NCBI GenBank assembly: GCA_002712335.1
Contig: PATI01000054.1
Location: 3,209 to 25,891 of the forward strand
Origin: Rhodospirillaceae bacterium
GTDB lineage: Bacteria > Pseudomonadota > Alphaproteobacteria > MPNO01 > UBA2964
Length of the DNA stretch: 22,683 nucleotides
Direction of reading: 5' to 3'
Part shown: positions 5,344 to 22,683 of the stretch, piece by piece
Layout: each line of letters begins with the position of its first letter
How positions within the stretch are numbered: position 1 is the stretch's first letter
Position numbers and translations under genes: made by a program
Notes under the pieces: generated by a model
The model's database searches: none
The model's input: only the letters and a program-made list of their open reading frames with translations
What the model was told of the DNA's origin: nothing

Positions 5344-5685
5344 TCAATCAAATGATTTGAGTCTTTCTTTAGGCGGAACAATATCTGTAACCAAATCCCT
5401 AATCAGACCTTTATTGGCTAGCGGTTCTATTGTCACAACGCCAGTATTTAATCTTGCAGTACAGGCATAATTGACCTTTCCATCAACTAATACCATACAC
5501 TCTTTGCAAGCATTAGCGCTTACACATGAATACCGGAACGCCAATGATGGATCTCTATTCTCACGAACCCAAACTAGTGCGTCAAGTACAGAGGCTCCAT
5601 CTTCATGGGGAACCTCAAATTCATCGTAACGAGGGTCCTCACCATTAGAACCACGATAAATAATAAGTTTTGTTATTTGTGTCAT
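5344..5685 (-). CDS. Stand-alone 2Fe-2S protein resembling the N-terminal half of SdhB/FrdB
   Basis: The 113-residue protein matches only the plant-ferredoxin-type N-terminal domain of succinate dehydrogenase/fumarate reductase iron-sulfur subunits. The FRYSC...ACKEC motif and later cysteine give ligands Cys54, Cys60, Cys63 and Cys75. Spacing is C-x5-C-x2-C-x11-C, one residue longer in the first gap than usual. It ends at the IRDLVTD boundary where a full subunit (about 240 residues) would go on into the 3Fe-4S/4Fe-4S domain. Only 27 bases separate it from the convergent gene, and they hold no remnant of that domain, so it looks naturally short. Its ATG overlaps the flavoprotein stop (ATGA), implying coupled translation. 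It probably carries electrons to or from that flavoprotein. No membrane anchor subunit is nearby. Confidence 0.85.
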   Translation of the reverse strand: MTQITKLIIYRGSNGEDPRYDEFEVPHEDGASVLDALVWVRENRDPSLAFRYSCVSANACKECMVLVDGKVNYACTARLNTGVVTIEPLANKGLIRDLVTDIVPPKERLKSFD

Positions 5686-7400
5686 ATGTCGGCAAAACGC
5701 TTTTCTTCAAGAGTATAGCTAAATCTCGGTACTTCCGCCCATCCGGTAATAATTTCTTCATCTCGTAGCTCAAGAACCTGATTTTTCTCAAAATCAGGCG
5801 ACGCCTCTGGAATGTCCTCTCTTTGATGGGCACCCCTACTTTCCGTACGATTTATAGCAGACAAAGTAACAGACTCCGCACAAAGAAGACCTGCACGAAG
5901 TTCATACCAGTCTAATAGTGCCTGATTAAAGGGTTTATCGTCAGGAATAAAAACTCTATCTAAATCCTGTGTTCGCATTTCACGTATTCGAGCCAAACCT
6001 TGTTTAAGTTTTTCAGCGGTTCTAAAAAGTCCAACTTTTTCCCACATTAACTCCTGCAATTCGGTCATCAGAGCTGTTGGACTAGGTTCGGAAAGTTTAT
6101 TGGATTGAAGCCTCGGTGATATTCCAGAAAGAATACCCTTAGCTGCGTCTTCTTCAATTGGAACACGTTTTTTTAATTTGGAATACTGAGCACCAAATCG
6201 ACCAGCGCGCTCACCGAAAACAAATGCCTCTGGAATGGCATTACCGGAAAGCCGGGTCGCACCATTTGCTCCACCCACTGCTTCACCCGCAGCATATAAG
6301 CCCGGCACCCTCGTCTTCATTTCATTATCCACGCGTATTCCACCCATATGATAATGGGCAATAGGTGAAACTTCGATAGGGGATTTCTGTAGATCTATTC
6401 CATTTTTGGCAAGACGACCAATCATTGGTCCGAATTTTTCTTTCATTACGTCTTCGTCAATGTGCTCAAAACTCAACCAAACCCCACCATGCGGTGATCC
6501 GCGTCCCTGTTCAACCTCTTTATATATTGCATAAGACGCGACATCCCTTCTTGCAGTATAAGTACCGCCATCTGAGGCACCATAATTGTGAATGAATTCT
6601 TCAAAATCACCATTGAGTAATCTGCCCCCGACTTTATATCGAAAGGGGTCCCACATGATAGGATCCATCCCTACCATTCGAGGGGCAAGGTGCCCAATCG
6701 GAAAAAATTGTACAAACTCCATATCGATTAGCTCTGCCCCTGCCCGCAGCGCCATCGAATAAGCTTCACCACCCATATTAATTGAAGCGCTGTTTCTTTT
6801 ATAAAGCCGCGTCAATCCTCCTGCCGCTAAGATAATTGCAGATGCCTCAATTATAACGGTCTCGCCACTCTCAACATCAATTGCCACAGCACCGACTGCC
6901 TCTTCGTCCTGCAACACAATCTCAATGACAGCCAATCCGCTTGCTCGCCTTATACCGGTGCGTTGAGCCACTTCACCTCTCAATGCACGAGCAACTGCAG
7001 GGCCGGTATTTAAATAATCAACATACACACATCGCTTAAGACCATGTCCGGGAGCGTGAACCTGTGTCATGCGTCCATCTACCCGTGCCCAACCAACTTT
7101 CCAATCATCCATTTGGTGAATCCTAGAAACCGATTCTTCGCAAAGGATTGCGGAGAGTTCTTCGTTACATAACCCATGACCAGCCTCAATTGTATCAGAC
7201 AAATGGTGTGTCCAATGATCGGGCTCTTCGTGGCCAACTGCTGATGCCACCGTCATTTGTGCCATCACGGTCGCACCACCACGACTAATTAAGCTTTTGT
7301 CGGCTAGAATGACGTCTACTCCATCACGAGCGGCTGCAACCGCCGCATACATTCCAGCGCCACCGGCTCCTATTACAAAAACATCCGTTGATATTTTCAT
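5682..7400 (-). CDS. FAD-binding oxidoreductase, fumarate reductase/succinate dehydrogenase flavoprotein type
   Basis: This 572-residue flavoprotein belongs to the SdhA/FrdA/AprA/NadB superfamily. The Rossmann FAD motif GAGGAGMYAA is at 11-20. The following segment is SRGGATVMAQ (39-48), which lacks the histidine that covalently holds FAD in SdhA, so FAD is probably bound non-covalently. HYHMGG (about 349-354), ATRLSGNAIPEA (about 381-392) and TARRDVA (about 281-287) keep the substrate-site histidine and arginines of the family. The usual QFHPTG reads QFFPIG (about 225), so one dicarboxylate-binding histidine is replaced by Phe. The C-terminal helical domain is present. It is the first gene of a two-gene unit with the small 2Fe-2S protein. 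The substrate may not be succinate or fumarate. Confidence 0.85.
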   Translation of the reverse strand: MKISTDVFVIGAGGAGMYAAVAAARDGVDVILADKSLISRGGATVMAQMTVASAVGHEEPDHWTHHLSDTIEAGHGLCNEELSAILCEESVSRIHQMDDWKVGWARVDGRMTQVHAPGHGLKRCVYVDYLNTGPAVARALRGEVAQRTGIRRASGLAVIEIVLQDEEAVGAVAIDVESGETVIIEASAIILAAGGLTRLYKRNSASINMGGEAYSMALRAGAELIDMEFVQFFPIGHLAPRMVGMDPIMWDPFRYKVGGRLLNGDFEEFIHNYGASDGGTYTARRDVASYAIYKEVEQGRGSPHGGVWLSFEHIDEDVMKEKFGPMIGRLAKNGIDLQKSPIEVSPIAHYHMGGIRVDNEMKTRVPGLYAAGEAVGGANGATRLSGNAIPEAFVFGERAGRFGAQYSKLKKRVPIEEDAAKGILSGISPRLQSNKLSEPSPTALMTELQELMWEKVGLFRTAEKLKQGLARIREMRTQDLDRVFIPDDKPFNQALLDWYELRAGLLCAESVTLSAINRTESRGAHQREDIPEASPDFEKNQVLELRDEEIITGWAEVPRFSYTLEEKRFADI

Positions 7401-7527
7401 TGTTAAATTTTTATCCCAAAATTCCGTTCGCGTTTATACACTGGAAACCATTTATTAACCAGCACTAGAGCTTGCGCCAAACCGACCCGCTCGATAGTTT
7501 TATAAATATTCCTTGAGGAGAGTAAAT
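7401..7527. promoter_or_regulatory. Divergent intergenic region, presumed promoters
   Basis: This AT-rich stretch of 127 bases separates the leftward flavoprotein gene from the rightward ExxH protein gene, so both promoters should lie here. I cannot see a convincing -35/-10 pair. TATAAA at 7501-7506 is the best-looking -10 element but has no well-spaced partner. Confidence 0.4.
7515..7520 (+). promoter_or_regulatory. Shine-Dalgarno site fixing the start at 7528
   Basis: GAGGAG lies seven bases before the ATG at 7528. A possible TTG start at 7513 overlaps this site, so the ATG is chosen. Confidence 0.7.
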
Positions 7528-8268
7528 ATGAATTTCACGATGCAACAACTTATAAATATCGGAACGCCCTACTGGGATGCTGAGGCAGAGATTGCACGAA
7601 AATTTTATAAGACTGCTCAACGAAATGATCACGCATTTTATTTACGAGCCCAGTTATGGAAAGAACTTAATCCTGTAGATGGTTTTTTTAACGGGTTACA
7701 CAAGGAGTTAACCCGAGCTGCCGCTTTATTCCCGAAGGTTGGTAAAACTATAGATCGACACGATTATCTATTTCTACTGGACCAACTTGTTTCAGAGTAT
7801 AATCACTTTGTTTTGCTTGCTGATGTTTTAGAACATGTTCAAGGTCGAAAACTTTCAAAACGAGATTTAAAACAACTTCCACAAGAGAAAATACTAGGTG
7901 ACATACGACGCCACTACGTAAACAAGGGCGGAAAAATTGGAAGGGCTGCAGTTGGTATAACGGAAGGAGGAGGCACAGCTTTATTCAGAGTCGGAAAAAA
8001 TTTGAAAGGAAGCAAAATTAACCAAATGACCGCCAAGGCTATGAAAGTTATTTGGGAAGATGAAAAAGATCATTATATGGTACAAGCACAAATAGCCGCA
8101 AAAATAATTAAAACTAAATCAGATATGAATAAAATGAGAGAGGCAATGTTAGAGGTCAGCTTACAAAGGGTTTGGATGCGGAATGAAATGTTTCAAAACC
8201 CAATGACAAAGGAAGAAGTTGAAAATTATATTGATCGGCGAAAAAGATCTATCGAAAAGAATTTTTAA
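7528..8268 (+). CDS. Unrecognised 246-residue protein with two ExxH motifs; possible ferritin-like di-iron protein
   Basis: I do not recognise this gene by name. The product is predicted mostly helical and soluble, with no signal peptide or membrane segment. Two ExxH motifs stand out, EYNH (90-93) and EKDH (179-182), about 89 residues apart. Other glutamates that could complete a site are Glu60 (HKELTR) and Glu146 (GITEGGGTALF). One E plus one ExxH, repeated, is the signature of four-helix di-iron carboxylate proteins, so a ferritin-like oxygenase or oxidase is possible; this is inference. The C-terminal third is rich in Lys, Arg and Glu. It diverges from the flavoprotein gene and converges on pgk with one base between stop codons. 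An alternative is a helical protein of another kind, with the motifs arising by chance. Confidence 0.75.
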   Translation: MNFTMQQLINIGTPYWDAEAEIARKFYKTAQRNDHAFYLRAQLWKELNPVDGFFNGLHKELTRAAALFPKVGKTIDRHDYLFLLDQLVSEYNHFVLLADVLEHVQGRKLSKRDLKQLPQEKILGDIRRHYVNKGGKIGRAAVGITEGGGTALFRVGKNLKGSKINQMTAKAMKVIWEDEKDHYMVQAQIAAKIIKTKSDMNKMREAMLEVSLQRVWMRNEMFQNPMTKEEVENYIDRRKRSIEKNF

Positions 8269-12663: not shown

Positions 12664-14190
12664 TTAATTCTCCATTGTCAAAAGTGAAACACCAAGTAAA
12701 GCTCGACGTTTCAACCATGGACTTGCCCGATATCTTGGATCCCCATAAAAGTCACACATCGCATTTAGTATCTTCAATACTCGCTTAGCACCAACATTAT
12801 CGCCCATCGATAAAGGGCCCATTGGGTAGCCAAGACCCAAGGTCACCGCCTTATCAATATCCGATGGGCTAGCAATTCTTTGCTGCGCAATGTCACAAGC
12901 AATGTTGACGATAGTTGCAACAACTCGCTGATTTACAAAACCCGGACTATCATGAATTACCGTTACGGTGTGACCATCAGCGGCTAGTGCCGCATGAACT
13001 AAATCACGAAGATCCGGATCAGAAACTGGTGTGCTCATGAGCGTACGCCGGCCATCCAATCCGAATAAAGTATCAACGCCAAATGAACGTTCCGCTTCAA
13101 CTCCTTCCGTTGTAGCCGCACTGGTTACATCGGATCCAGTCGGCGTAAATAAACATAGACTGCGTGTTGATGGTTTTTGACCCTTATCAATTTCGATCAC
13201 TTCACGCAAAGCACCTAGAAGTACATCATACCCCTCTGGCTCGGCTTTGCTAATCCATATAGATTCTGGCATCACTTCTGGAGCACCTTCCTCCAAATTC
13301 TGCATTTTCTTATTATTTTTATAGGTATAAAAACCCCGACCGGTTTTACGACCATGCAAACCCGCCACTGAACGTTGAAGGGTCAAGGGGTTAGGACGAA
13401 AACGTGGTTCACCATAAAATTGTTGATAAATAGACTCCATAACTGGGTGGGATACATCTAAGCCAGTTGTATCCATAAGCTCAAATGGGCCCATACGAAA
13501 ATTTGGTCCTCCCTCCCGCAGGAGATCATCAACACCCGAGAAATTTGTGATTCCTTCTGACACAATGCGGACCCCTTCCGTATTAAGTCCTCGGCCAGCA
13601 TGATTAACCAAAAACCCGGGTGTATCTTTTGCGCGAACAGGCTCATGTCCAACGCGCCTAGAAATTCTGACCAATATTTCACAGGTTTCTTCATTTGTTT
13701 CCAATCCGTTCACAACTTCCACTATTTTCATTAGAGGTACCGGATTAAAAAAATGAAATCCTGCAAACCGTCCTGGATATTTCATTACTGCTGCAATCGC
13801 AGTCACGGAAAGGGACGAAGTGTTTGTCACTAACACACAGTCCTTTGTCACACACTCTTCTAATGACAGAAAAACTTGACGTTTAACATCGAGATCTTCA
13901 ATCACAGCTTCAATTACTAAATCTGCGACTGCTAAATCCGATAGTTTGCCTGCAACCGCAAGCCTCTCAACTGCTCCTTTTGCCTCCTCTTCGCTCATTA
14001 GACCTTTTTCACAGGCCCGGAAGATCATTCTGTCCGCGAAATCCCTTCCTGCTGCCGCTGCTTCATCGTTCGTGTCATAGAGTAAAACCTCGAGTCCCCC
14101 CGTCGCCATTATTTGTGCGATACCCCGTCCCATGGCGCCAGCACCTATAATACCAACAACAAAGTCTGGGCTATTTGGTTTTTTAGGCAT
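12664..14190 (-). CDS. 3-hydroxyacyl-CoA dehydrogenase, two-domain PaaH/PaaC type
   Basis: This protein oxidises a 3-hydroxyacyl-CoA to the 3-oxoacyl-CoA with NAD+. The N-terminal Rossmann motif is GIIGAGAMGRGIAQ (about 13-26), followed by NTSSLSVTAIA and GFHFFNPVPLMKIVEVV with the catalytic His. The first C-terminal domain holds DTPGFLVNHAGRGLNTEG. A second such domain repeats the pattern (DSPGFVNQRV...GLGYPMGPL), giving 508 residues, like the 3-hydroxyadipyl-CoA dehydrogenases of phenylacetate degradation. It is the last gene of the eight-gene minus-strand operon, 11 bases after the NMO-like gene, with GAGGTAA upstream of its ATG. It would feed the thiolase in the same operon. The exact substrate cannot be read from sequence. 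Confidence 0.92.
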   Translation of the reverse strand: MPKKPNSPDFVVGIIGAGAMGRGIAQIMATGGLEVLLYDTNDEAAAAGRDFADRMIFRACEKGLMSEEEAKGAVERLAVAGKLSDLAVADLVIEAVIEDLDVKRQVFLSLEECVTKDCVLVTNTSSLSVTAIAAVMKYPGRFAGFHFFNPVPLMKIVEVVNGLETNEETCEILVRISRRVGHEPVRAKDTPGFLVNHAGRGLNTEGVRIVSEGITNFSGVDDLLREGGPNFRMGPFELMDTTGLDVSHPVMESIYQQFYGEPRFRPNPLTLQRSVAGLHGRKTGRGFYTYKNNKKMQNLEEGAPEVMPESIWISKAEPEGYDVLLGALREVIEIDKGQKPSTRSLCLFTPTGSDVTSAATTEGVEAERSFGVDTLFGLDGRRTLMSTPVSDPDLRDLVHAALAADGHTVTVIHDSPGFVNQRVVATIVNIACDIAQQRIASPSDIDKAVTLGLGYPMGPLSMGDNVGAKRVLKILNAMCDFYGDPRYRASPWLKRRALLGVSLLTMEN

Positions 14191-14201
14191 TAAATTTTAC
14201 C

Positions 14202-15200
14202 TCAATCATTCCCTAAAGATAATTTATATAGTCGGCAACGCATTAAAACCGCATCCTTAACAATATCATCAAATATTTCTTGAACACTGGCAATTTTATT
14301 AGCAAAAGCACAACTCTGGCCCATGGACAGAGTACCTTGCTCAAAGTTGCCAGACTCATAGGCCGCCTTTTGGTTGGACCCCTCTACCAGCAATCTATAT
14401 TTTTCGAAATCTTTAATACCCTGTTTCTCAAGTTCATTGACAGTTTTAGCAGTAGCATTATCAAGGACACGCGAATTGTCATTAAAAATAGACATAACGA
14501 TTCTTGTATCACTCTCAACGGTTTCCACTACTCGCTGTTTATATTTATTATCCGCCCAAATTTCTTCGGCTACGGTCATTCGCGAACCCAACAAAATTCC
14601 ATCTGCACCGAGAACCAAAGCAGCGAGCAGCTGACGACCAGTACCGAGACCGCCCGCTAATACAACGGGGATATCCAAGTCTTGGGGAACTACGGCTCCC
14701 TGAACAATCCCGCCAATCATATTCATCCCCGGGTGCCCACCCGCTTCTGCGCCAAGAATAGTGATAGCGTCTACTCCAGCAGCAGCAGCACTTCTAGCGT
14801 GACGCAAGGTAGTGCATTTATGTATTACTTTCATTCCAGCATCTTTAATTCGAGGCAAAAAAGCCTTTGGGCTAAAACCAGCCGTCTCTACAAATTCTAC
14901 CTTTTCTTCAATCGCAATATCTAAAAAGATAGCTAGTTCTTCATTTGCCTCGGGACGCGCCGATACGTAAATATTTACTCCAAATGGTTTTCCACCGGTT
15001 ATTTCGCGACATTTCCTAAGCTCTTTACGATAGGCATCTTTTGTTGCAAAGCTCCGTGGAGTTATAAACCCCATGCCTCCAGCATTAACCACAGCGCCGA
15101 CAAATTTTGCATCAGCCAACCACATTAACCCACCGCATAGAATTGGATGTGTAATATCGAACAATTCCGTAATTGGGGTCTTAAAAACTGGTGATACCAT
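14202..15200 (-). CDS. NAD(P)H/FMN-dependent oxidoreductase of the nitronate monooxygenase (2-nitropropane dioxygenase)/FabK family
   Basis: The 332-residue TIM-barrel flavoprotein shows THPILCGGLMWLAD at the start, VNAGGMGFIT, the catalytic-His motif GAEAGGHPG (about 149-157), and the FMN-phosphate region AGGLGTGRQLLAALVLGADGILLGS. Database names would be nitronate monooxygenase, but the fold is shared with the enoyl reductase FabK. A relative, IpdC, acts on CoA thioesters in steroid ring degradation. Inside an acyl-CoA operon a reductase of a CoA thioester is at least as likely as nitronate oxidation. I start it at the ATG at 15200; a TTG at 15206 is also in frame and neither has a clear Shine-Dalgarno. 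It follows the DUF35 gene by about nine bases. Confidence 0.85.
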   Translation of the reverse strand: MVSPVFKTPITELFDITHPILCGGLMWLADAKFVGAVVNAGGMGFITPRSFATKDAYRKELRKCREITGGKPFGVNIYVSARPEANEELAIFLDIAIEEKVEFVETAGFSPKAFLPRIKDAGMKVIHKCTTLRHARSAAAAGVDAITILGAEAGGHPGMNMIGGIVQGAVVPQDLDIPVVLAGGLGTGRQLLAALVLGADGILLGSRMTVAEEIWADNKYKQRVVETVESDTRIVMSIFNDNSRVLDNATAKTVNELEKQGIKDFEKYRLLVEGSNQKAAYESGNFEQGTLSMGQSCAFANKIASVQEIFDDIVKDAVLMRCRLYKLSLGND

Positions 15201-15209
15201 TATCAAATA

Positions 15210-15626
15210 CTATTCTGCAGGAATGAATTTGGTACCATACCTAATGATACCCTCTTGATCATAAAGGCGGCGTACAACGCCTCTTATTTTCATTCCAATT
15301 TCAAGCTTATCGGGATTCACTTCAGAGAGACGCACCATAACTTTAGGCCCCTCCCTGAGTTCAACAACGCCACACAGTATATCACCGGTCATGGTTTGTT
15401 CATCGTCGAATTCGGAAGGTGCTCCATTCCCAGCAACGAGACTATACGTATAAAGCACGCCTTCTCCGGAAAGTGGGGTGTTAATAAACTCATCACCGCC
15501 GCAATTTATACAAACGGATCTTTTTGGGTAGGCAAGCAGACCACAGCTGCTGCATTTTCCAGCAACCATCCTGAGTCTATCATCAATGCTACTGCTAAAA
15601 ATTGGGAGAGATATATATGAAGTCAT
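15210..15626 (-). CDS. DUF35 Zn-ribbon/OB-fold protein (thiolase partner)
   Basis: Small DUF35 proteins bind CoA-enzyme partners and are needed by SCP2-type thiolases, for example BbsA with BbsB, and in the archaeal thiolase/HMG-CoA synthase complex. The 138 residues begin with a rubredoxin-like Zn ribbon with Cys25, Cys28, Cys39 and Cys42 (KCSSCGL...CINCGG), followed by an OB fold (GVLYTYSLV, GVVELREGPKVMVRL, IGMKIRGVVRRL). The ATG overlaps the stop of the HMGCS-like gene (ATGA). Its ribosome binding site is the G9 tract at the end of that gene. It lies two genes after the thiolase, so it most likely forms a complex with the thiolase and the HMGCS-like protein. Confidence 0.92.
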   Translation of the reverse strand: MTSYISLPIFSSSIDDRLRMVAGKCSSCGLLAYPKRSVCINCGGDEFINTPLSGEGVLYTYSLVAGNGAPSEFDDEQTMTGDILCGVVELREGPKVMVRLSEVNPDKLEIGMKIRGVVRRLYDQEGIIRYGTKFIPAE

Positions 15627-16633
15627 GCCCCCCCCCTAAATTTACTTGATAGCACCCTACGATGTTTTAAATAGGTGATGTAATCTACAAGCTCTCCTCC
15701 AACAATCAAATCAGCCACTTTAGAACCTTTTCTTCGCCTTTTTCTTAATTGAGACCCGGCACCAAACCAGGCAGCCGTAGCGCCAGCACCAATCCCCGCA
15801 CTTAGGATTTCCTCTCCTACTCGAGCTTTATCTAAAGAAGCAGCTAGAGCAAGTGGCGCTGAAGCAGCACCCGCATCACCGATCATACACCACAACGCAT
15901 CTATTTCTGCTTTTGGACATCCTAAAATTTTTCCAGCCCTTCTTCCTAGACTGGTTTCAATACCCAAAGCTAGGCGTCGGACCTTATCAACTTTTTTAAT
16001 TGATAGCAGACCTCCAAGGTCCTGTAGAACAATCAAGTTATCGCGCGTGCGCAGTTCCAAATCAGTTAAAGTTTCCTCACCATGCCGCCTAAACCGCGAG
16101 CCAAAGGTCTCCCGAGTCAGACTTATGGAATCCTTGTATACGGCTACCATACCTTGCGAACCAACTATGAAGGCGGCAGCGGCAGCGCCAAGAGAGTGCT
16201 CAAAACCTGAGTCCACTTTTCCCACAGGCGCGTCAGCGGCAATAGCCAATGCGTATTGCCCTTTATGCGTCAAACAAAACTCGATAGCTGAGATTAGAGC
16301 TTGTAATCCTGCTTGGGGTGATCCGGTTATTTCTGTAACCCTGATGGCCCTGTTGTTAAATAAAGCTGTTGGCAGTGTGGCCGCCGAAGGTTTTTCATCA
16401 TAAGGCGGCGTAGTTACCCCAAAAAATAATGCGGAGACCTCTATATCAAAAGGTATACGTTCCAGGGACTGTCGAGCGGCTTCTATACCTAGGGTAACCG
16501 GATCTTCATCATACGAACAGAAGGCTTTTTGTTTAAGACCTCTAGCGGAACAATTTCCCCAAGCTTCAACATAAGCGCTTGCTGGCAAACGAAAGTGGGG
16601 CAGTGCCACACCGTAACTCTCAATCCCAACCAT
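15623..16633 (-). CDS. HMG-CoA synthase-like thiolase-fold protein lacking the catalytic residues
   Basis: The 336 residues follow archaeal-type HMG-CoA synthase closely: GIESYGVALPHFRL at the start, DEDPVTLGIEAAR, PYDEKPSAATLPTAL (78-91) and QYALAIAADAPVGK...HSLGAAAAAFIVG (127-158). Toward the C-terminus it has DAGAASAPLALAASLDKARVGEEIL. Catalytic positions differ. The Glu of SES is Thr (VTT, 73-75), the Cys of ACKAG is missing (TGSPQAG, 103-109, with no Cys nearby), and no FHQPNG motif with its His is found around 205-235. Condensation by the normal mechanism therefore looks impossible. The operon order thiolase-HMGCS-DUF35 resembles the archaeal complex, so a structural, CoA-channelling or altered catalytic role is likely. 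It starts four bases after the thiolase stop. Confidence 0.85.
   Translation of the reverse strand: MVGIESYGVALPHFRLPASAYVEAWGNCSARGLKQKAFCSYDEDPVTLGIEAARQSLERIPFDIEVSALFFGVTTPPYDEKPSAATLPTALFNNRAIRVTEITGSPQAGLQALISAIEFCLTHKGQYALAIAADAPVGKVDSGFEHSLGAAAAAFIVGSQGMVAVYKDSISLTRETFGSRFRRHGEETLTDLELRTRDNLIVLQDLGGLLSIKKVDKVRRLALGIETSLGRRAGKILGCPKAEIDALWCMIGDAGAASAPLALAASLDKARVGEEILSAGIGAGATAAWFGAGSQLRKRRRKGSKVADLIVGGELVDYITYLKHRRVLSSKFRGGA
15628..15636 (-). repeat. G9 homopolymer (minus strand) at the HMGCS-like/DUF35 junction
   Basis: Nine consecutive G (C on the plus strand) encode the final Arg-Gly-Gly-Ala of the HMGCS-like protein. They also act as the purine-rich ribosome binding site directly ahead of the DUF35 ATG at 15626. 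One extra G, or a -1 ribosomal shift, would read through the overlap into DUF35 in frame. Confidence 0.85.
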
Positions 16634-16637
16634 TTTC

Positions 16638-17810
16638 TTAATTCACCGCCTTAAGAATGTGCACGGCTACCGCCGCTCCGGATCCACCAACATTTTGTGT
16701 GAGACCATAACGCTTATTATTGAGTTGACGTTCTGAGGTATCAGCACACCCACGAAGCTGCTTAACCACTTCATAAATTTGCCCGGTTCCTGTGGAACCG
16801 ATTGGGTGTCCTTTGGCAATAAGACCACCAGAGTTATTAACCGGCCGAGCGCCATCTCGGCCGGTGGCTCCACTTGCAATATAATTTCCTGCTTCACCTT
16901 TTCCGCAAAACCCAAGATCCTCGTAGGCCAACAACTCAGCAATTGCAAAACAATCATGAACCTCAGCAAAATCAATGTTTTTGGGGCCAATTCCTGCCAT
17001 CTCATAAGCCTGTTTAGCTGCACGCCTTGTACCCTCCAACGCGGTCATAGTGTAACGATCGTGGATAGCTACATAATCGCTAGCACCACCACTACCCACA
17101 ACCAAAACTGGTTGATTCGTAAAACTGGATGCAAGATCGGCACGGCACATAATTACTACCGATGCACCGTCGGTAATACCACAAGCATCAGATAATGACA
17201 GTGGGGAAGCCAAATTTGGAGATTTCATCGCACGCTCAAGGTCAAGGGGCACTCGGAACTGAGCTTTAGGATTAGCCATGGCATTGGCACGATTTTTTAC
17301 TGAAGCTATCTTGATTTGTTTTTCCTCTGTACCAAATTCGTACATATGTCTTCGGGCCATCATAGCGTAAATTCCGGCAAAATTAGTCCCAGCCAGCCTC
17401 TCCCATTCTACGTCTCCGGAAATGCCAAGCCAAAGCCGATTTCTTCCTCTGGGAAGATCAGACATTTTTTCAATTCCCCCAGCCACCGCAATCTTGGTTC
17501 TACCGGATGCTATTGCTGCAACTGCATCACGCATGGCAAAGCCAGATGAAGCACAGGCATTCTCAATGTGGCGCGAACTTGCACCAATCATCCCTGCAGC
17601 TTCCATCATCAAGGGTGCAAAGTTACCAAGTTGTGCACCTCCAGTGGACAAAGATCCGATGTATGCCTCTTCTACCTCTAATGGATCAAACCCCTTATCA
17701 ACATCATTGAAGGCGTCAACTGCCGCTTCATGAAACAAATCCTTAAGGGTTTTATGAGGGTACATCCCATAGCATGTTTGCCCTACACCGATGACCACGA
17801 CATCTACCAT
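16638..17810 (-). CDS. Thiolase, SCP2 type (acetyl-CoA acetyltransferase family)
   Basis: Thiolases cleave 3-oxoacyl-CoA with CoA, or run the reverse condensation. The 390 residues carry the nucleophilic cysteine Cys86 in ENACASSG. HDCF (His about 285) and GHPIGSTG (about 333-340) provide the other catalytic groups. The C-terminal CxG cysteine of classic thiolases is absent (VGGSG, about 373-378), as in the SCP2 and archaeal groups. Members of that group usually need a DUF35 partner, and one is encoded two genes downstream. It begins 12 bases after the crotonase, with GGAAAG upstream of its ATG, and ends four bases before the HMGCS-like gene. It likely does the final C-C cleavage after the 3-hydroxyacyl-CoA dehydrogenase of this operon. 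Confidence 0.93.
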   Translation of the reverse strand: MVDVVVIGVGQTCYGMYPHKTLKDLFHEAAVDAFNDVDKGFDPLEVEEAYIGSLSTGGAQLGNFAPLMMEAAGMIGASSRHIENACASSGFAMRDAVAAIASGRTKIAVAGGIEKMSDLPRGRNRLWLGISGDVEWERLAGTNFAGIYAMMARRHMYEFGTEEKQIKIASVKNRANAMANPKAQFRVPLDLERAMKSPNLASPLSLSDACGITDGASVVIMCRADLASSFTNQPVLVVGSGGASDYVAIHDRYTMTALEGTRRAAKQAYEMAGIGPKNIDFAEVHDCFAIAELLAYEDLGFCGKGEAGNYIASGATGRDGARPVNNSGGLIAKGHPIGSTGTGQIYEVVKQLRGCADTSERQLNNKRYGLTQNVGGSGAAVAVHILKAVN

Positions 17811-17822
17811 ATCGACTTTCCG

Positions 17823-18590
17823 TCACCTAAAGGCGGGTTTGCGCTTATCTAAAAATGCAGACCTACCCTCCTCGAGTTCTGGACCAATGAAAGCTGTTGA
17901 TTGCGACAAACTTTCTAATTCAAGTGCCGCTTCGAGAGATTGAGGTTCTATTGAAAGATGACGCTTTGTAAGAGCAAAGGCATGTGGTGGCATATCTATT
18001 AGACATCTAACTTTTTCGATCGCCTGTTTTTCAGCCTCCCCATCGGGAACCAGCTCATCCGCAAGTCCGATTTCTCTAGCCTCTTGAGATTTCACCATTT
18101 GAGCATAAAGCAAAATTTGTCGCGCCCTAGAGTGCCCCACTTTTCTTTTCAGAGTAAACAGTATGCCATAGTCTGGTGTAAGCCCAACTCGAAAGAAGGG
18201 AAATCCAATGGTGCCGCTCTGAGCAAGAATAATACTATCACAAAGTAAAACGAGGCCGGCTCCTGCTCCAACGGCAAAACCTTCCACTCCCGCGACTATT
18301 GGCTTTTCGGCCTCAGCCAGCAGCCGTACCAACCGATGATTTTCTTTCATCCTTGCTCGACCAGATCTGATATCCATTTCAGTCATGGTGTCTATATCAC
18401 CTCCGGCACAGAAGTTACCGTCAGTGCTCCCTAGCACTATACCTTCAACCGCATTATCGCTAAGTGCTCCAGATAATTTATCAATCAGAGCATCACGTAT
18501 GTCTGGACTTAAAACATTTCTTTTTTCTGGCCGATTAATTGCAACCCTTATTATACCAGGCGCTACAGTTTCTGAATTCAGAACAGGCAT
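17823..18590 (-). CDS. Enoyl-CoA hydratase/isomerase family protein, PaaG-like
   Basis: This is a 255-residue crotonase-fold protein with both oxyanion-hole segments (FCAGGDI at 60-66 and GFAVGAGAG at 104-112). The two glutamates of classic hydratases are replaced, the first by Gly112 and the second by Phe (FPFFRVG, about 130-136). It keeps GLTPDYG with Asp140, the position used by the PaaG-type isomerases of phenylacetate breakdown. An isomerase is therefore more likely than a hydratase. I use the ATG at 18590, preceded by GGAG at good spacing, rather than a TTG at 18596. It lies 24 bases after the LplA-like gene and 12 before the thiolase. Confidence 0.88.
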   Translation of the reverse strand: MPVLNSETVAPGIIRVAINRPEKRNVLSPDIRDALIDKLSGALSDNAVEGIVLGSTDGNFCAGGDIDTMTEMDIRSGRARMKENHRLVRLLAEAEKPIVAGVEGFAVGAGAGLVLLCDSIILAQSGTIGFPFFRVGLTPDYGILFTLKRKVGHSRARQILLYAQMVKSQEAREIGLADELVPDGEAEKQAIEKVRCLIDMPPHAFALTKRHLSIEPQSLEAALELESLSQSTAFIGPELEEGRSAFLDKRKPAFR

Positions 18591-18614
18591 GACCAAAGCT
18601 CCAATAAATTATTA

Positions 18615-19727
18615 CTATAATTCCACAGGCGACATTTTATCGAGTGCTATTTCAATTGCAGCTAAGATATCGTTAGCCGTCACTCCCGCAAACTCAACAT
18701 CATCCCGGTCCAGAAATCTCGCTACACAATTACTCAGACTATCAAGATTTGCGGAGCACCCTGTCAAAGATTCTTCCAACCAAGCAACGCTCACCAAAGG
18801 ACGTGGATGCCAATCACCGTTAATAATTGCCTTTAGAACCTCGCCATTCCGTATTACTAACGTGGCCCAAATCAGGCCTCCAACGGCCTTTGCCCTGCCT
18901 AGACCCATCATATCACCGTTCCTTAATACCCCGCCAAGCATTGTCTTTCTGCTATTAGCAAACAACCATTCATCACTCTCATATTCTGAACGGAAATCAT
19001 CTGCATAACTGCGTTCAATATCTATTACCCTACCTTTCACCAAATCGCCCTCTTGAAAAGCATGAGCCGTCGTCTCTCGTACTAGGGTTTCCAACTCTTT
19101 CGCATCTATAATTTTCTTAGCTTCTCTTTCCAACCAGGTGAAACGGGAAGTCATATCCTTCAAAGCCTTATCTTTCACCTTTTCAGGCGGCATAGGCATT
19201 ATTTTTCCAGCCAACTCTGTATCGATGGGTTTAACGTTAACCACGATTCGGAAGGTCATTACCCCATCCTCGATTTTTAGCGAAGTGGGAACTAACTTAC
19301 GACCCTCCACTTGGATATCATTTAGGGGACGATATTCTGCAGCAAACCCATAGCGCTTAGATAAAGTTTCCGCAAAAGCTTTCAAAATTTTAGGAAAGGC
19401 CTCGGTCGTGGTGTCCGGTACTTCCGGATGATCTGTTGGTAAAAAATAAACGAGAAATGCAGAGCCTTCCCCCGCATAAACCGGGCCACCACCATTTGGC
19501 CGGCGTCTGATTGAAACATTATTCTCTCGACAAAAATTTAGGTCTAATGCTTGTTCTGGATCTTCGTTCACCCCAATTGTAATTGAATCAGCATCAAATA
19601 TATTAAGATACACGGTTGGCGGTGCTTCACCCTTAATGACGGCTTTCTCTATTGCCGGCGAGACAGATACCGAAAAATCAGCATAAGAATTTTTATCCAC
19701 AATTAAACGCCATGTATTATCCGCCAT
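18615..19727 (-). CDS. Lipoate-protein ligase A family protein
   Basis: The 370 residues match LplA with its C-terminal accessory domain (DEWLFANSR near 258, then INGDWHPRP...LEESLTGCSANLDSL). The N-terminal catalytic domain has RRRPNGGGPVYAG (about 75-87), where RRxSGGGAVFHD is usual, and NDIQVEGRKLVP with the lysine expected to contact the acyl-adenylate. The downstream SGSAYR and HHGTLL stretches are much changed (PTSLK, TFRIVV). LplA enzymes adenylate lipoate and attach it to a lysine of E2 or GcvH domains, but no lipoyl domain is encoded in this window. It starts two bases after the PaaK-like gene, with GAGAGGA inside the end of that gene. The true acyl substrate and acceptor are open; the family call is firm. 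Confidence 0.85.
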   Translation of the reverse strand: MADNTWRLIVDKNSYADFSVSVSPAIEKAVIKGEAPPTVYLNIFDADSITIGVNEDPEQALDLNFCRENNVSIRRRPNGGGPVYAGEGSAFLVYFLPTDHPEVPDTTTEAFPKILKAFAETLSKRYGFAAEYRPLNDIQVEGRKLVPTSLKIEDGVMTFRIVVNVKPIDTELAGKIMPMPPEKVKDKALKDMTSRFTWLEREAKKIIDAKELETLVRETTAHAFQEGDLVKGRVIDIERSYADDFRSEYESDEWLFANSRKTMLGGVLRNGDMMGLGRAKAVGGLIWATLVIRNGEVLKAIINGDWHPRPLVSVAWLEESLTGCSANLDSLSNCVARFLDRDDVEFAGVTANDILAAIEIALDKMSPVEL

Positions 19728-19729
19728 CT

Positions 19730-20905
19730 TTATTTTTTCCTCTCATCTACAACCAACGGACCTTCATCAAGTTCCGGTGAAATAACAACTTCATCAACAG
19801 AGATTAGCGTCTGACTTTTAAAACGTTTAGAAACAATTTCTGCAGTCTGATCCCCGCCTGCACCTTTAAGCATTAATGACAACCTATCACTGCCAGCGGC
19901 TGTAGCCGATACTATCAACCTGTAAACACCTTTCAATTCTTCCAATCCCAAAAGTATGGTTCTGAGCTCTGAAGGATAGATTTTGACTCCTTTCACCTTT
20001 ACCATCTCATCCGTCCTACCAAAAACAACATTGGGCAAACAAATTGTCCGCCCAAAAACTGAGGGCGTTTCAACCTTAATAGTAAGATCACCAGTCCGAT
20101 AACGAATTAAGGGTTGGGCTTCCTTATGTAGATGGGTGAGAACCAGTTCTCCTCGTTCTCCATCCTCGACGGGCTTCAAAGTCTCCGGGTCGATCACTTC
20201 CGCATATACAAGCTCGTCAAATATATGTACACCCTGCCCGCCAGGGAATGTTCTTCCAACGGGCAAAAACTCAGACAGGGAAAATGAATCCACTAACATT
20301 GTATCAGGCATTGCATTGGCAACCAAATTGTACAGGGTCTTGTTACCTGAAAAAGCTTCACCACCTGCAAAAAACACTTTGGGAGCTCTAACACCGGATT
20401 CAAGGAGACGCAGCGAAAAGCTTGGATTACCTGCAAGAATATTTACATTGTGAGCGTTACAAATTTCTGCTGCCCGGTCTGCCTCACCCGGCCCTAAGGG
20501 AATACAGGTTACGCCGTGCGCTTCCATTTGCGACTGATAAAATAGCCCTGCAACAAAAAGATGGTAGCCGAAAAATACCGCGCATACATCTCCATCATCA
20601 ACCCCACAGGCATCAAGATGAGTTCGACAAGAAGCTATCATCCGGTCAAGGTCTCCCCTAGTCTGCATAACCGGCACTAATCCGCCTCCCATTGGGCTTA
20701 GGTTCATCCTTACGGTTCTAGTGCCTCCAAAAGTACCGTAATTCGGTTTTTGCATTTCAGATACAAAGTCAGCCCGAGACATTAAGGGAATAGAACTTGC
20801 AAACTCGGTCAATCCCGAAACGGCATCTGGTAACCGCCCCGAATAAAAAGGGTGTCGGGCTAGACGGTCAAGCACCGCGTTTATAGCTTCAAGAGGAAAG
20901 GTCAT
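19730..20905 (-). CDS. Phenylacetate-CoA ligase (PaaK)-family adenylate-forming protein, altered active site
   Basis: The 391-residue product resembles PaaK-type acyl-CoA ligases, which are about 440 residues long. It keeps the adenylate-binding FDELVYAEVIDPETL, the strongly conserved GELVLTHLHKEAQPLIRYRTGDL, and the hinge GRTDEMVKVKGVKIYP. The Ser/Thr-Gly-rich P-loop (SSGTTG in PaaK) is replaced by SPMGGG (70-75). Near the C-terminus the GKA that normally carries the catalytic lysine reads GPL (DEGPLVVDER). The adenylation half-reaction may therefore be impaired or changed. It is the first gene of the eight-gene operon. The ATG at 20905 has no clear Shine-Dalgarno. It lies 60 bases after the dioxygenase-like gene and could be co-transcribed with it. 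Confidence 0.85.
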   Translation of the reverse strand: MTFPLEAINAVLDRLARHPFYSGRLPDAVSGLTEFASSIPLMSRADFVSEMQKPNYGTFGGTRTVRMNLSPMGGGLVPVMQTRGDLDRMIASCRTHLDACGVDDGDVCAVFFGYHLFVAGLFYQSQMEAHGVTCIPLGPGEADRAAEICNAHNVNILAGNPSFSLRLLESGVRAPKVFFAGGEAFSGNKTLYNLVANAMPDTMLVDSFSLSEFLPVGRTFPGGQGVHIFDELVYAEVIDPETLKPVEDGERGELVLTHLHKEAQPLIRYRTGDLTIKVETPSVFGRTICLPNVVFGRTDEMVKVKGVKIYPSELRTILLGLEELKGVYRLIVSATAAGSDRLSLMLKGAGGDQTAEIVSKRFKSQTLISVDEVVISPELDEGPLVVDERKK

Positions 20906-21346: not shown

Positions 21347-21505
21347 ATTTACCTCAAGTCCAATAGTCGGCTTTATAATAACCTCATACAACCCCAAACG
21401 CATAACATGAAAAAACAGCCATAGACACCCGCAAGCTCACCTTGCCCTTTGGCTCTGGTTGGGTCACATTCACGTCCCCAGTTGATATGTGTTGGAGTAA
21501 TCGAA
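21347..21505. promoter_or_regulatory. Divergent control region between the dioxygenase and FAH genes
   Basis: These 159 bases separate two divergent genes and lie close to a MarR gene, so promoters and a MarR operator are expected here. GAGGT at 21351-21355 (minus strand) is the dioxygenase ribosome binding site, and GGAG at 21494-21497 (plus strand) serves the FAH gene. I found no convincing palindrome or -35/-10 pair; TATAAT at 21374-21379 lacks a partner. Confidence 0.45.
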
Positions 21506-22189
21506 ATGAACTATGTAATTCCAAGTTGGAATTTGCCAAGTCTACCCGTAGAAGGCAGCGAAGAGCGATTTCCAGTGCGACGGATATATTGTATCGGTCG
21601 TAATTATACCGCTCATGCCCGCGAAATGGGAGCAGACGAACGCGAGCCACCTTTCTTTTTTTTAAAGCCGGGAGACGCCATTGTGGAGAACAATGCTACG
21701 ATCCCTTACCCACCTGCGACTGAAAACCTTCATTATGAGGCCGAACTTGTTGTAGCATTAGGTAAATGTGGTTCCAATGTTTCTGTCGAAAATGCAAACG
21801 ATCATGTTTTTGGATACGGTGTCGGAATAGATCTCACGCGCCGTGACCTCCAGGAAGAAGCAAAGGGAATGCGACGCCCTTGGGATATGGGTAAGGGTTT
21901 TGATTCTTCAGCACCTTGTAGCAAAATTTATCCAGCATCCTCCATTGGTCATCCCGAAAATGGATCTATTACCTTAACGGTCAATGGTGAGTTACGACAG
22001 TCCGGCAATATTGGGGACATGATTTGGGATGTTCCAGAAAGTATTGCATACTTATCTACCCTGGTAACACTTGAACCGGGTGATCTTATTTATACTGGCA
22101 CCCCCGAAGGAGTGGGAGCGGTAAGAAGGGGTGAACAAATTGTTGTTCATGTTGAAGGTGTCTGCGACCTAACATTAAATATCAATTAA
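21506..22189 (+). CDS. Fumarylacetoacetate hydrolase family protein, probable fumarylpyruvate hydrolase type
   Basis: Enzymes of this family hydrolyse C-C bonds of ring-cleavage products, for example fumarylpyruvate to fumarate and pyruvate in the gentisate pathway. The 227 residues show CIGRNYTAHAREMG, PPFFFLKPGDAIV and the metal-binding HYEAELVVALG with its ExE pair. GVGIDLTRRDLQEEAKG adds the Asp ligand, and RPWDMGKGFDSSAP and YTGTPEGVGAV complete the core. TRRDLQ and the KxFDxSAP-like segment fit the fumarylpyruvate hydrolase branch best, but acylpyruvases look similar. The ATG at 21506 with GGAG eight bases upstream is preferred to longer in-frame options. MarR follows 16 bases later, likely in the same transcript. 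Confidence 0.9.
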   Translation: MNYVIPSWNLPSLPVEGSEERFPVRRIYCIGRNYTAHAREMGADEREPPFFFLKPGDAIVENNATIPYPPATENLHYEAELVVALGKCGSNVSVENANDHVFGYGVGIDLTRRDLQEEAKGMRRPWDMGKGFDSSAPCSKIYPASSIGHPENGSITLTVNGELRQSGNIGDMIWDVPESIAYLSTLVTLEPGDLIYTGTPEGVGAVRRGEQIVVHVEGVCDLTLNIN

Positions 22190-22205: not shown

Positions 22206-22683
22206 ATGGTTGAAAATACCGGAAACACCCAGACCACCCAAATGGGGGGGTTGCATGATTTAATTGGCTATAATTTGCGATGTGCTCAGATTGCAGTCTT
22301 TCAACATTTTAAAAACACCGTGGGGAATTTCAATATTTCCCCACCGCAGTACGGCGCAATGGTGCTTATTAAGGCCAATAAAGGGATAAGCCAATCGGCA
22401 ATAGCTAGTGCGCTTCGTTTTGATCGTTCGACGTTAGTCCAAATTATTGACCGACTTGAAAGCCGAAATTTAGTCGTACGGGAAGCGTCTATAAATGACC
22501 GCAGATCATATGCATTGCGATTAACCAAGTCTGGATCTGCCATGCTTAACCGTCTTAGAAAACTCGTAGAAAAACACGAGAAATATATGACGGAAAATCT
22601 AACTGATAGTGAACGCCAAACTCTGATCCAACTTCTTGCCAGAGTTCATAAAGAAGTAGATGATAATAAAAACACTGGAGGCG
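22206..22683 (+). CDS. MarR-family transcriptional regulator, 3'-truncated by the window edge
   Basis: Reading from the ATG at 22206 gives 159 residues with no stop before the window ends. The sequence has a helical dimerisation start, then a winged helix-turn-helix. SQSAIASALRFDRSTLVQII and DRLESRNLV form the recognition region, followed by the wing NDRRSYALRLTKSG. MarR dimers usually repress a nearby divergent operon and release DNA on binding an aromatic ligand. That would fit control of the dioxygenase gene and perhaps the CoA operon behind it. A run of seven G lies at 22244-22250 near the N-terminus, and an ATG at 22242 is an alternative start. The last residues (DNKNTGG) look close to the natural C-terminus. 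Confidence 0.9.
   Translation, partial: MVENTGNTQTTQMGGLHDLIGYNLRCAQIAVFQHFKNTVGNFNISPPQYGAMVLIKANKGISQSAIASALRFDRSTLVQIIDRLESRNLVVREASINDRRSYALRLTKSGSAMLNRLRKLVEKHEKYMTENLTDSERQTLIQLLARVHKEVDDNKNTGG

What the first reader, a model, noticed from the sequence alone, without database searches (positions are those of the whole stretch)
12664..20905. Eight-gene CoA-thioester operon of unknown substrate with several re-modelled active sites
Transcription order is PaaK-like, LplA-like, PaaG-like, SCP2-type thiolase, HMGCS-like, DUF35, NMO/FabK-like and two-domain 3-hydroxyacyl-CoA dehydrogenase, with spacers from 24 bases down to overlaps. The composition matches no catabolic pathway I can name. 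At least three members lack canonical catalytic residues, and an LplA-type ligase sits inside. Inference: a degradative pathway for an aromatic or alicyclic acid handled as a CoA (or other acyl carrier) thioester.
Basis: partly seen in the sequence, partly recalled or inferred. Interest (0 to 1): 0.72.

Follow-up and report, generated by a model that had tools for sequence, protein, structure and literature searches.

The report
Aromatic-acid operon with paired activators
A conserved gene set in uncultured marine bacteria probably breaks down an aromatic acid attached to coenzyme A, and it pairs a CoA ligase that has lost its ATP-handling parts with a lipoate-ligase relative that has kept its own, so the two may share one reaction.

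Summary
The eight-gene operon is real, and its order recurs in 10 loci from marine alphaproteobacterial MAGs. A ninth gene (PF08883 dioxygenase) lies just upstream in the 9 that reach that far. The order-wide core is PaaK-LplA-ECH-(NMO)-HCDH; the thiolase/HMGCS-like/DUF35 trio was found in 8 of 22 genomes.

Neighbours point to aromatic catabolism: gentisate 1,2-dioxygenase over its curated cut-off in 5 of 5 loci tested, and BoxB in 22 of 27 genomes of the order.

The new element is the first gene pair. The PaaK-like protein belongs to one clade without P-loop (21 of 21 rows) and A10 lysine (20 of 20 scorable), both used in adenylation. Its LplA-like partner keeps lipoyl-AMP-site residues (17 of 17 rows). 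They co-occur in Thermodesulfobacteriota (7 of 8 genomes with such a PaaK, among 297), though kinship inflates the statistics and 4 of 11 LplA genomes lack such a PaaK.

The HMGCS-like subunit lacks both catalytic residues, like PhlA, beside an intact SCP2-type thiolase; the ECH is PaaG-type.

Best reading: CoA-dependent aromatic-acid catabolism. Split activation (LplA makes acyl-AMP, PaaK makes acyl-CoA) is the boldest reading. Substrate and activities are untested.

The parts
19730..20905 (-). PaaK-like ANL-family protein (391 aa) without P-loop (A3) and A10 lysine; first of the eight
18615..19727 (-). LplA-like protein (370 aa) with RR..GG and ND....GRK residues kept; proposed partner of the PaaK-like protein
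17823..18596 (-). PaaG-type crotonase (isomerase-like, no hydratase glutamates); TTG start, ATG two codons later
16638..17810 (-). SCP2-type thiolase with ENACASSG, HDCFA and KGHP motifs intact
15623..16633 (-). HMG-CoA-synthase-like protein without catalytic Cys and Glu (PhlA-like state)
15210..15626 (-). DUF35 (zf-ChsH2 + OB fold) protein, expected linker of the trio
14202..15206 (-). NMO/FabK-like protein (FMN inferred), nearest solved relative PA1024; missing or broken in several relatives
12664..14190 (-). two-domain 3-hydroxyacyl-CoA dehydrogenase, over the cut-off of NF006124
20966..21403 (-). PF08883 (DOPA 4,5-dioxygenase family) protein, 60 bases upstream on the same strand; start uncertain, about 19 codons further in by comparison with relatives
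21449..22189 (+). FAA-hydrolase family protein, divergent
22206..22682 (+). MarR regulator (runs to the window end), nearest NCBIfam model Saro_0803 family, below its cut-off

Best explanation
The operon encodes catabolism of an aromatic (or aryl-alkanoic) acid as CoA thioester. The acid is activated by the PaaK-like/LplA-like pair. The intermediate passes a PaaG-type isomerase and an NAD-dependent 3-hydroxyacyl-CoA dehydrogenase. The resulting 3-oxoacyl-CoA is cleaved by the SCP2-type thiolase, which sits in a complex with DUF35 and a catalytically dead HMGCS-like subunit, as in PhlACB. The NMO-like protein serves an auxiliary, dispensable redox step. Ring cleavage is by the neighbouring dioxygenases (gentisate type and PF08883) under the MarR regulator. 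Shown by sequence: genes, order, conservation, intact thiolase motifs, lost residues, neighbours. Inferred: every reaction, the complex, the substrate, and the link to gentisate.
For: Order conserved in 10 loci. The PaaK-like gene is in 22 of 27 genomes of the order, with LplA next to it in all 21 whose contig continues. Thiolase motifs are intact wherever they could be read (some bases unread in L001 and L004, some motifs not aligned in L003, L010, L020), and the closest PDB thiolase is the archaeal trio subunit 6esq. HMGCS-like best PDB hits are PhlA entries and 6esq; PhlA is reported to lack Cys and Glu while PhlC carries the active Cys (PMC6392133 passages). HCDH is over the NF006124 cut-off. 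Gentisate dioxygenase is over the TIGR02272 cut-off in 5 of 5 loci tested. FAH and PF08883 are over Pfam cut-offs. BoxB is in 22 of 27 genomes, and in one it lies about 6 kb from the PaaK-like gene (L116). One relative scanned (L107) carries a 3-phenylpropionate-type MFS just over its cut-off (260 against 259 bits) and a Rieske protein nearest benzoate dioxygenase but far below cut-off. The trio locus L014 carries a family III CoA-transferase and TRAP/TAXI genes instead of the pair, as expected if the pair activates the acid. LipB is in 23 of 27 genomes, so LplA* is not needed for housekeeping lipoylation.
Against: Gentisate genes were seen only beside trio-bearing loci; they were not noticed in the fetched stretches of trio-less members or Roseobacter, which were not scanned for them. 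Among the scanned window ORFs there is no hydratase with two glutamates, no acyl-CoA dehydrogenase and no CoA-ester hydroxylase. BoxB and the operon are each in 22 of 27 genomes with 19 shared (G003, G406 and G411 have the operon without BoxB; G413, G417 and G425 have BoxB without it), so no link beyond shared ancestry is shown. MarR and FAH are below NCBIfam cut-offs. Neighbouring genes need not act on the same substrate.
Confidence: 0.5

Rival explanations
1. The PaaK-like protein still makes the acyl-CoA alone with an unusual site, and the LplA-like protein attaches an acyl or lipoyl group to a lysine of a carrier protein encoded elsewhere.
For: LplA-like keeps lipoyl-AMP-site residues and the LplA fold with its C-terminal domain. 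Eight of 22 other PaaK-type rows also lack the A10 lysine but keep the P-loop, so motif loss alone does not prove loss of activity. Four of 11 Thermodesulfobacteriota genomes with the LplA-like gene have no P-loop-less PaaK.
Against: No carrier gene among the 22 window ORFs scanned (ORFs under 80 aa not scanned). In the 43-row alignment joint loss of A3 and A10 is confined to the clade that co-occurs with LplA. Changes in the A3 loop are tabulated with up to 2,000-fold loss or no activity (PMC8388817 passages).
Confidence: 0.2
2. Ordinary beta-oxidation of an aliphatic or alicyclic acid; the aromatic neighbours are unrelated.
For: In Roseobacter L020 the set lies beside FadJ, a thiolase, an acyl-CoA ligase and a TRAP-TAXI transporter; in Thermodesulfobacteriota beside acyl-CoA dehydrogenases and a carboxyl transferase.
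Against: PF08883 and FAH genes keep their place in 9 of 9 loci that reach upstream, and the gentisate dioxygenase in the five tested plus four by N-terminus.
Confidence: 0.2
3. A biosynthetic set: the trio forms a C-C bond (PhlACB-like C-acylation or reverse beta-oxidation) and the FabK-like protein reduces an enoyl thioester.
For: Trio state resembles PhlACB; NMO/FabK-like gene present.
Against: No polyketide-synthase or carrier gene among the 22 window ORFs scanned; NMO is broken or absent in L008 and L009 and not found in 5 of 10 trio-less loci that carry ECH and HCDH; nearest solved relative of the NMO is PA1024, not FabK; neighbours are ring-cleaving.
Confidence: 0.1
4. Lipoate, biotin or fatty-acid salvage, with LplA-like as a true lipoate ligase.
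For: Fold and key lysine.
Against: 68.9 bits against a cut-off of 280 for TIGR00545; LipB in 23 of 27 genomes; constant partnership with the PaaK-like gene in the order.
Confidence: 0.07

Closest known systems
PhlACB Friedel-Crafts acyltransferase (2,4-diacetylphloroglucinol)
   Same: Thiolase with active Cys, HMGCS-like subunit without Cys and Glu, and a DUF35 linker.
   Different: The thiolase here is closer to the archaeal 6esq subunit (280 bits) than to PhlC (121.5 bits); setting looks catabolic.
Archaeal acetoacetyl-CoA thiolase/HMGCS/DUF35 complex (6esq)
   Same: Same three gene families side by side.
   Different: HMGCS Cys and Glu lost here; 53 of 73 aligned sequences keep both, 20 of 73 (the window protein included) lack both.
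Phenylacetate (Paa) pathway
   Same: PaaK-, PaaG- and PaaH-like genes plus a thiolase.
   Different: No PaaABCDE or PaaZ among the window ORFs scanned; ligase lacks A3/A10; thiolase of another type.
Salicylyl-AMP ligase / salicylyl-CoA synthetase (Streptomyces sp. WA46)
   Same: Acid activation reported as split between two proteins (the second 'probably'), with gentisate 1,2-dioxygenase downstream (review PMC4600096 passages).
   Different: Original paper not held, sequences not compared; an LplA-fold partner is not mentioned in the passages seen.
Benzoylsuccinyl-CoA thiolase BbsAB
   Same: Thiolase plus DUF35.
   Different: No HMGCS-like third subunit (recalled); scores below cut-offs.

Membership tests
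PaaK phenylacetate-CoA ligase | TIGR02155 curated score (646.3) | tested here: not met
   128.9 bits
PaaK phenylacetate-CoA ligase | A3 P-loop | tested here: not met
   absent in 21 of 21 clade rows; recognisable, in part as variants, in the 22 others of the alignment
PaaK phenylacetate-CoA ligase | A10 lysine | tested here: not met
   absent in 20 of 20 clade rows scored, one not scorable; present in 13 of 22 others, absent in 8, one truncated
PaaK phenylacetate-CoA ligase | A7 and A8 motifs | tested here: met
   YRTGDLT and GRTDEM..KG in the window protein
Lipoate-protein ligase LplA | catalytic domain PF21948 | tested here: met
   81.4 bits, cut-off 27
Lipoate-protein ligase LplA | TIGR00545 curated score (280) | tested here: not met
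   68.9 bits
Lipoate-protein ligase LplA | RR..GG and ND....GxK residues | tested here: met
   RR, second G, ND, G, K in 17 of 17 rows chosen; their role recalled
Lipoate-protein ligase LplA | lipoyl transfer to a carrier | not testable with these tools
   needs an assay
HMG-CoA synthase | catalytic Cys and Glu | tested here: not met
   Pro and Thr at these columns
HMG-CoA synthase | NF003274 curated score (244) | tested here: not met
   171.6 bits
SCP2-type thiolase | nucleophile Cys, HDCF and GHP motifs | tested here: met
   window protein and relatives; HDCF as SCP-2 thiolase motif from PMC12329534 passages
PhlACB-type complex | assembled complex and C-acylation | not testable with these tools
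   no complex prediction offered
Enoyl-CoA hydratase | two catalytic glutamates | tested here: not met
   no Glu at either place in 21 of 21 rows of the order, 19 distinct contigs; positions recalled
PaaG-type isomerase | Asp in GLxPDxG | tested here: met
   20 of 21 rows of the order, the residue unread in L004; best PDB hits 6slb/6sl9/3hrx, their PaaG identity recalled
3-hydroxyacyl-CoA dehydrogenase NF006124 | curated score 508 | tested here: met
   644.6 bits
Gentisate pathway | gentisate 1,2-dioxygenase nearby | tested here: met
   in relatives only: 5 of 5 tested loci over TIGR02272; the window ends before that gene
Paa pathway | PaaABCDE epoxidase in the cluster | tested here: not met
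   none among the 22 window ORFs scanned
Split salicylate activation (WA46 type) | homology to the two WA46 proteins | not tested
   sequences not at hand; original paper not held

The most novel reading that the evidence does not exclude
The first two genes encode a two-protein acyl-CoA ligase made from two unrelated folds: the LplA-like protein makes the acyl-adenylate from acid and ATP, and the PaaK-like protein, stripped of P-loop and A10 lysine, only swaps AMP for CoA. The module is found in two phyla, seems to have moved into Roseobacter together with the trio, and stands where other trio loci have a CoA-transferase.
Probability: 0.3. Interest if true: 0.78.

Novelty: new variant of a known kind. 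Interest (0 to 1): 0.6.

Why it matters
CoA ligases of the ANL superfamily normally do adenylation and thioesterification in one protein. A natural pair in which one partner has lost the adenylation motifs and the other is a lipoate-ligase relative would be a new way to activate acids, and would change how many 'PaaK' and 'LplA' annotations in ocean metagenomes are read. The 20 HMGCS-like sequences without catalytic residues also suggest that PhlA-like scaffold subunits are commoner than the characterised case. A RefSeq Roseobacter record not labelled as a MAG (L020) carries the core, so the question looks testable.

Tried and rejected
HMG-CoA synthesis or mevalonate role: rejected because Cys and Glu are lost. 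Housekeeping lipoylation: disfavoured because LipB is in 23 of 27 genomes. ThDP enzyme as a fixed member: directly upstream of the PaaK-like gene in 11 of 22 genomes, but in three genomes of the window's sub-clade that I looked at its relative lies elsewhere, between UbiD-type genes, so it is not part of the unit. Box pathway as the operon's own downstream: not shown, 19 of 27 genomes have both. A structure model of the PaaK-like protein was too poor to use (pLDDT 63). A plasmid search with the Roseobacter PaaK-like protein found nothing at E 1e-60. A literature search for both ligase names together gave no paper; other combinations gave none or one off-topic paper. The A10 loss alone was dropped as a specific mark because 8 of 22 controls share it. 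The profile search finds LplA-like matches in all 13 genomes asked, including two (G911, G999) that one search missed at its stricter limit, but it also hits other paralogs, so the table 7/1/4/285 uses only; the Fisher value is inflated because five of the seven genomes are close kin. One search counted the column before the HMGCS Cys by mistake; one search is the right count (53 of 73 Glu+Cys, 20 of 73 neither).
Full report
1. Observation. Pfam and NCBIfam give, in transcription order, AMP-binding/PaaK-like (PF00501 at 26 bits, just below its cut-off of 29.9), LplA-B_cat, ECH_1, Thiolase_N/Thiolase_C_1, an HMG-CoA-synthase-like protein, zf-ChsH2/OB (DUF35), NMO, and 3HCDH. Spacers are 2, 18, 12, 4, -4, 3 and 11 bases. 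A PF08883 protein (DOPA dioxygenase family) lies 60 bases upstream on the same strand, with a divergent FAA hydrolase and a MarR gene beyond it. Downstream lie transketolase, GAPDH and PGK genes. No whole genome is held for the window.

2. Conservation. A genome scan with an alignment of the HMGCS-like family gave 80 loci. Ten (L001-L010) carry the same order, whole-gene identities 57-97%: L001, L002, L005 and L006 complete; L004 cut in the last gene by the contig end; L010 with several genes in pieces; L003 starting inside the thiolase; L008 with the NMO in three pieces; L009 without NMO; L007 matching only through DUF35, HMGCS gene in pieces. Nine of the ten reach upstream, and all nine have the PF08883 and FAH genes in place; the gap from PF08883 to PaaK is 59-60 bases in seven of them, 86 in L009 and 178 in L008. 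Their titles name Rhodospirillaceae or Alphaproteobacteria (eight), one Rickettsiales and one Flavobacteriales MAG.

3. What is core. In the order of L001's genome, 22 of 27 genomes have the PaaK-like gene at E up to 1e-50. LplA follows it in all 21 whose contig continues. The trio was found beside it in 8 of 22 (G001-G006, G411, G415), not found in the fetched stretch in 11, and cannot be judged in 3 cut by contig ends (G406, G416, G418); the rest of those genomes was not searched for the trio. Of the 11, G405 has PaaK-LplA but none of the other queried genes in the 7 kb that follow; the other 10 have ECH and HCDH, 5 of them also NMO. So the core is PaaK-LplA-ECH-(NMO)-HCDH. A ThDP enzyme (NCBIfam NF006203, over its cut-off) lies directly upstream of the PaaK-like gene in 11 of 22. 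Outside the order the PaaK-like gene is rare: 2 of 394 genomes of the Roseobacter family at E 1e-60; LplA was in 5 of 385 genomes of the class at E 1e-45, all in the order. In Roseobacter L020 the pair, the trio and a PaaH-type HCDH overlap head to tail, beside FadJ, a thiolase, an acyl-CoA ligase and TRAP-TAXI genes.

4. The PaaK-like protein. Compared with PaaK of known structure it lacks the A3 P-loop. In 297 genomes of the phylum of a MAG titled Thermodesulfobacteriota, the same protein type was sought with the L143 homologue: eight genomes give full-length matches at E up to 1.4e-118, one (G911) a partial match, and the next hits start at 6.9e-66. All nine of the first group have SPxxxxLxP in place of the loop; the 21 other fetched hits have a recognisable loop, some as variants such as SSTGSPG. 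The A10 lysine is missing in the clade: 20 of 20 scorable rows, one not scorable. Of the 22 other rows 13 keep it, 8 lack it and one is truncated. So only the joint loss is specific. A7 and A8 are kept; the A5 glutamate is kept in the alphaproteobacterial rows and lost in the scorable Thermodesulfobacteriota rows. A tree puts the 21 rows in one clade against 23 others, support 100/98. In the review PMC8388817 (passages) the P-loop binds ATP phosphates, changes in it are listed with up to 2,000-fold loss or no activity, and the A10 lysine acts in the adenylation conformation.

5. The LplA-like protein. It scores 81.4 bits with PF21948 but far below lipoate-ligase cut-offs. RR, G, ND, G and K of the lipoyl-AMP site are kept in 17 of 17 rows chosen from both phyla (the role of these residues is recalled). 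The model (pLDDT 88.7) matches LplA structures best (6jom, 8cri, TM by target about 0.8).

6. Pairing. In the same 297 genomes LplA is in 11 and the full-length P-loop-less PaaK in 8; 7 share both (Fisher 6.9e-11). Five of the seven are close kin with the genes on different contigs, so independent cases are few. G1082 has PaaK-ECH-LplA, and G848 has PaaK-LplA overlapping by four bases, followed by a family III CoA-transferase. G911 has a diverged LplA (27%) directly before its partly matching PaaK, with two acyl-CoA dehydrogenases (one of them checked by Pfam) and an HCDH-like gene. Against a strict pair: four LplA genomes (G012, G821, G827, G950) have no such PaaK, and G999 has the PaaK but no LplA at the limit.

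7. The trio. The thiolase keeps ENACASSG, HDCFA and KGHP. The HMGCS-like protein lacks Glu and Cys together with 19 relatives (20 of 73 rows); 53 of 73 have both. PhlA has lost the same residues, and only PhlC residues are reported to act in the acyl transfer (PMC6392133 passages). The trio locus L014 carries a family III CoA-transferase and TRAP/TAXI genes (L016 and L019 similar by sequence only), which fits a role of the PaaK-LplA pair in acid activation.

8. Context for the substrate. Beyond FAH the relatives carry gentisate 1,2-dioxygenase: 5 of 5 tested are over the cut-off (451.7-459.0 against 442.1); four more show the same N-terminus. The MarR is nearest the Saro_0803 family (123.4 bits, cut-off 200), whose namesake is described as a resveratrol-responsive regulator (PMC10046596, search listing and abstract start). 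BoxB is in 22 of 27 genomes, 19 shared with the operon. The ECH has the PaaG pattern. Together this favours an aromatic acid handled as CoA ester and ending in gentisate-type cleavage, but gentisate genes were seen only near trio-bearing loci.

9. Mechanism. Likely: activation, isomerisation, oxidation to 3-oxoacyl-CoA, thiolysis, ring cleavage; all inferred. The boldest step, split activation (LplA makes acyl-AMP, PaaK makes acyl-CoA), explains why one partner lost just the adenylation motifs while the other kept its nucleotide site. [quoted passage not shown] original not held). No paper in the library holds both 'lipoate-protein ligase' and 'phenylacetate-CoA ligase'.

10. Verdict. Real, conserved and mostly built from known families; a new variant because of the paired activators and the dead HMGCS-like subunit in a catabolic-looking setting. 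Function is inferred, not shown.

Noticed in passing
window 2986-5316, 5344-7400: Aerobic CO-dehydrogenase-type Mo hydroxylase large subunit and an SdhA-like flavoprotein (both below NCBIfam cut-offs) with a 2Fe-2S protein between; the flavoprotein gene lies near PGK in L001, L006 and L010 too, and all three genes in L009.
   Followed up: no
window 7513-8268: 251-aa protein without any Pfam or NCBIfam match at the limits used, conserved at 75-91% near PGK in L001, L002, L006, L008, L010 and L119.
   Followed up: no
L014 (also L016, L019): Trio without the PaaK-LplA pair but with family III CoA-transferase and TRAP/TAXI transporter (checked in L014; others by sequence only).
   Followed up: partly
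L106, L111, L113, L114, L115: A second PaaK-type gene (25-28% identity; P-loop and A10 lysine checked and kept in L106) followed by a PF08883 gene upstream of the operon.
   Followed up: partly
L106, L107, L111: A DUF123-type gene sits between LplA and ECH in trio-less members; Pfam checked in L107 only.
   Followed up: no
L159, L160, L161, L162, L168, L173, L175, L176: Another PaaK subgroup in the Thermodesulfobacteriota genomes keeps a P-loop-like stretch but lacks the A10 lysine.
   Followed up: no
L139:9468-12641: Two LplA-like genes (37% and 41% identical to the window's) lie convergent about 1 kb apart in one chromosome.
   Followed up: no
L185-L187: ThDP enzyme and divergent 3-phenylpropionate-type MFS between two UbiD-family genes, conserved in three genomes (UbiD checked by Pfam in L185 only).
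   Followed up: partly
L020:10972-11394: The Roseobacter DUF35 protein has lost the zinc-ribbon cysteines.
   Followed up: no
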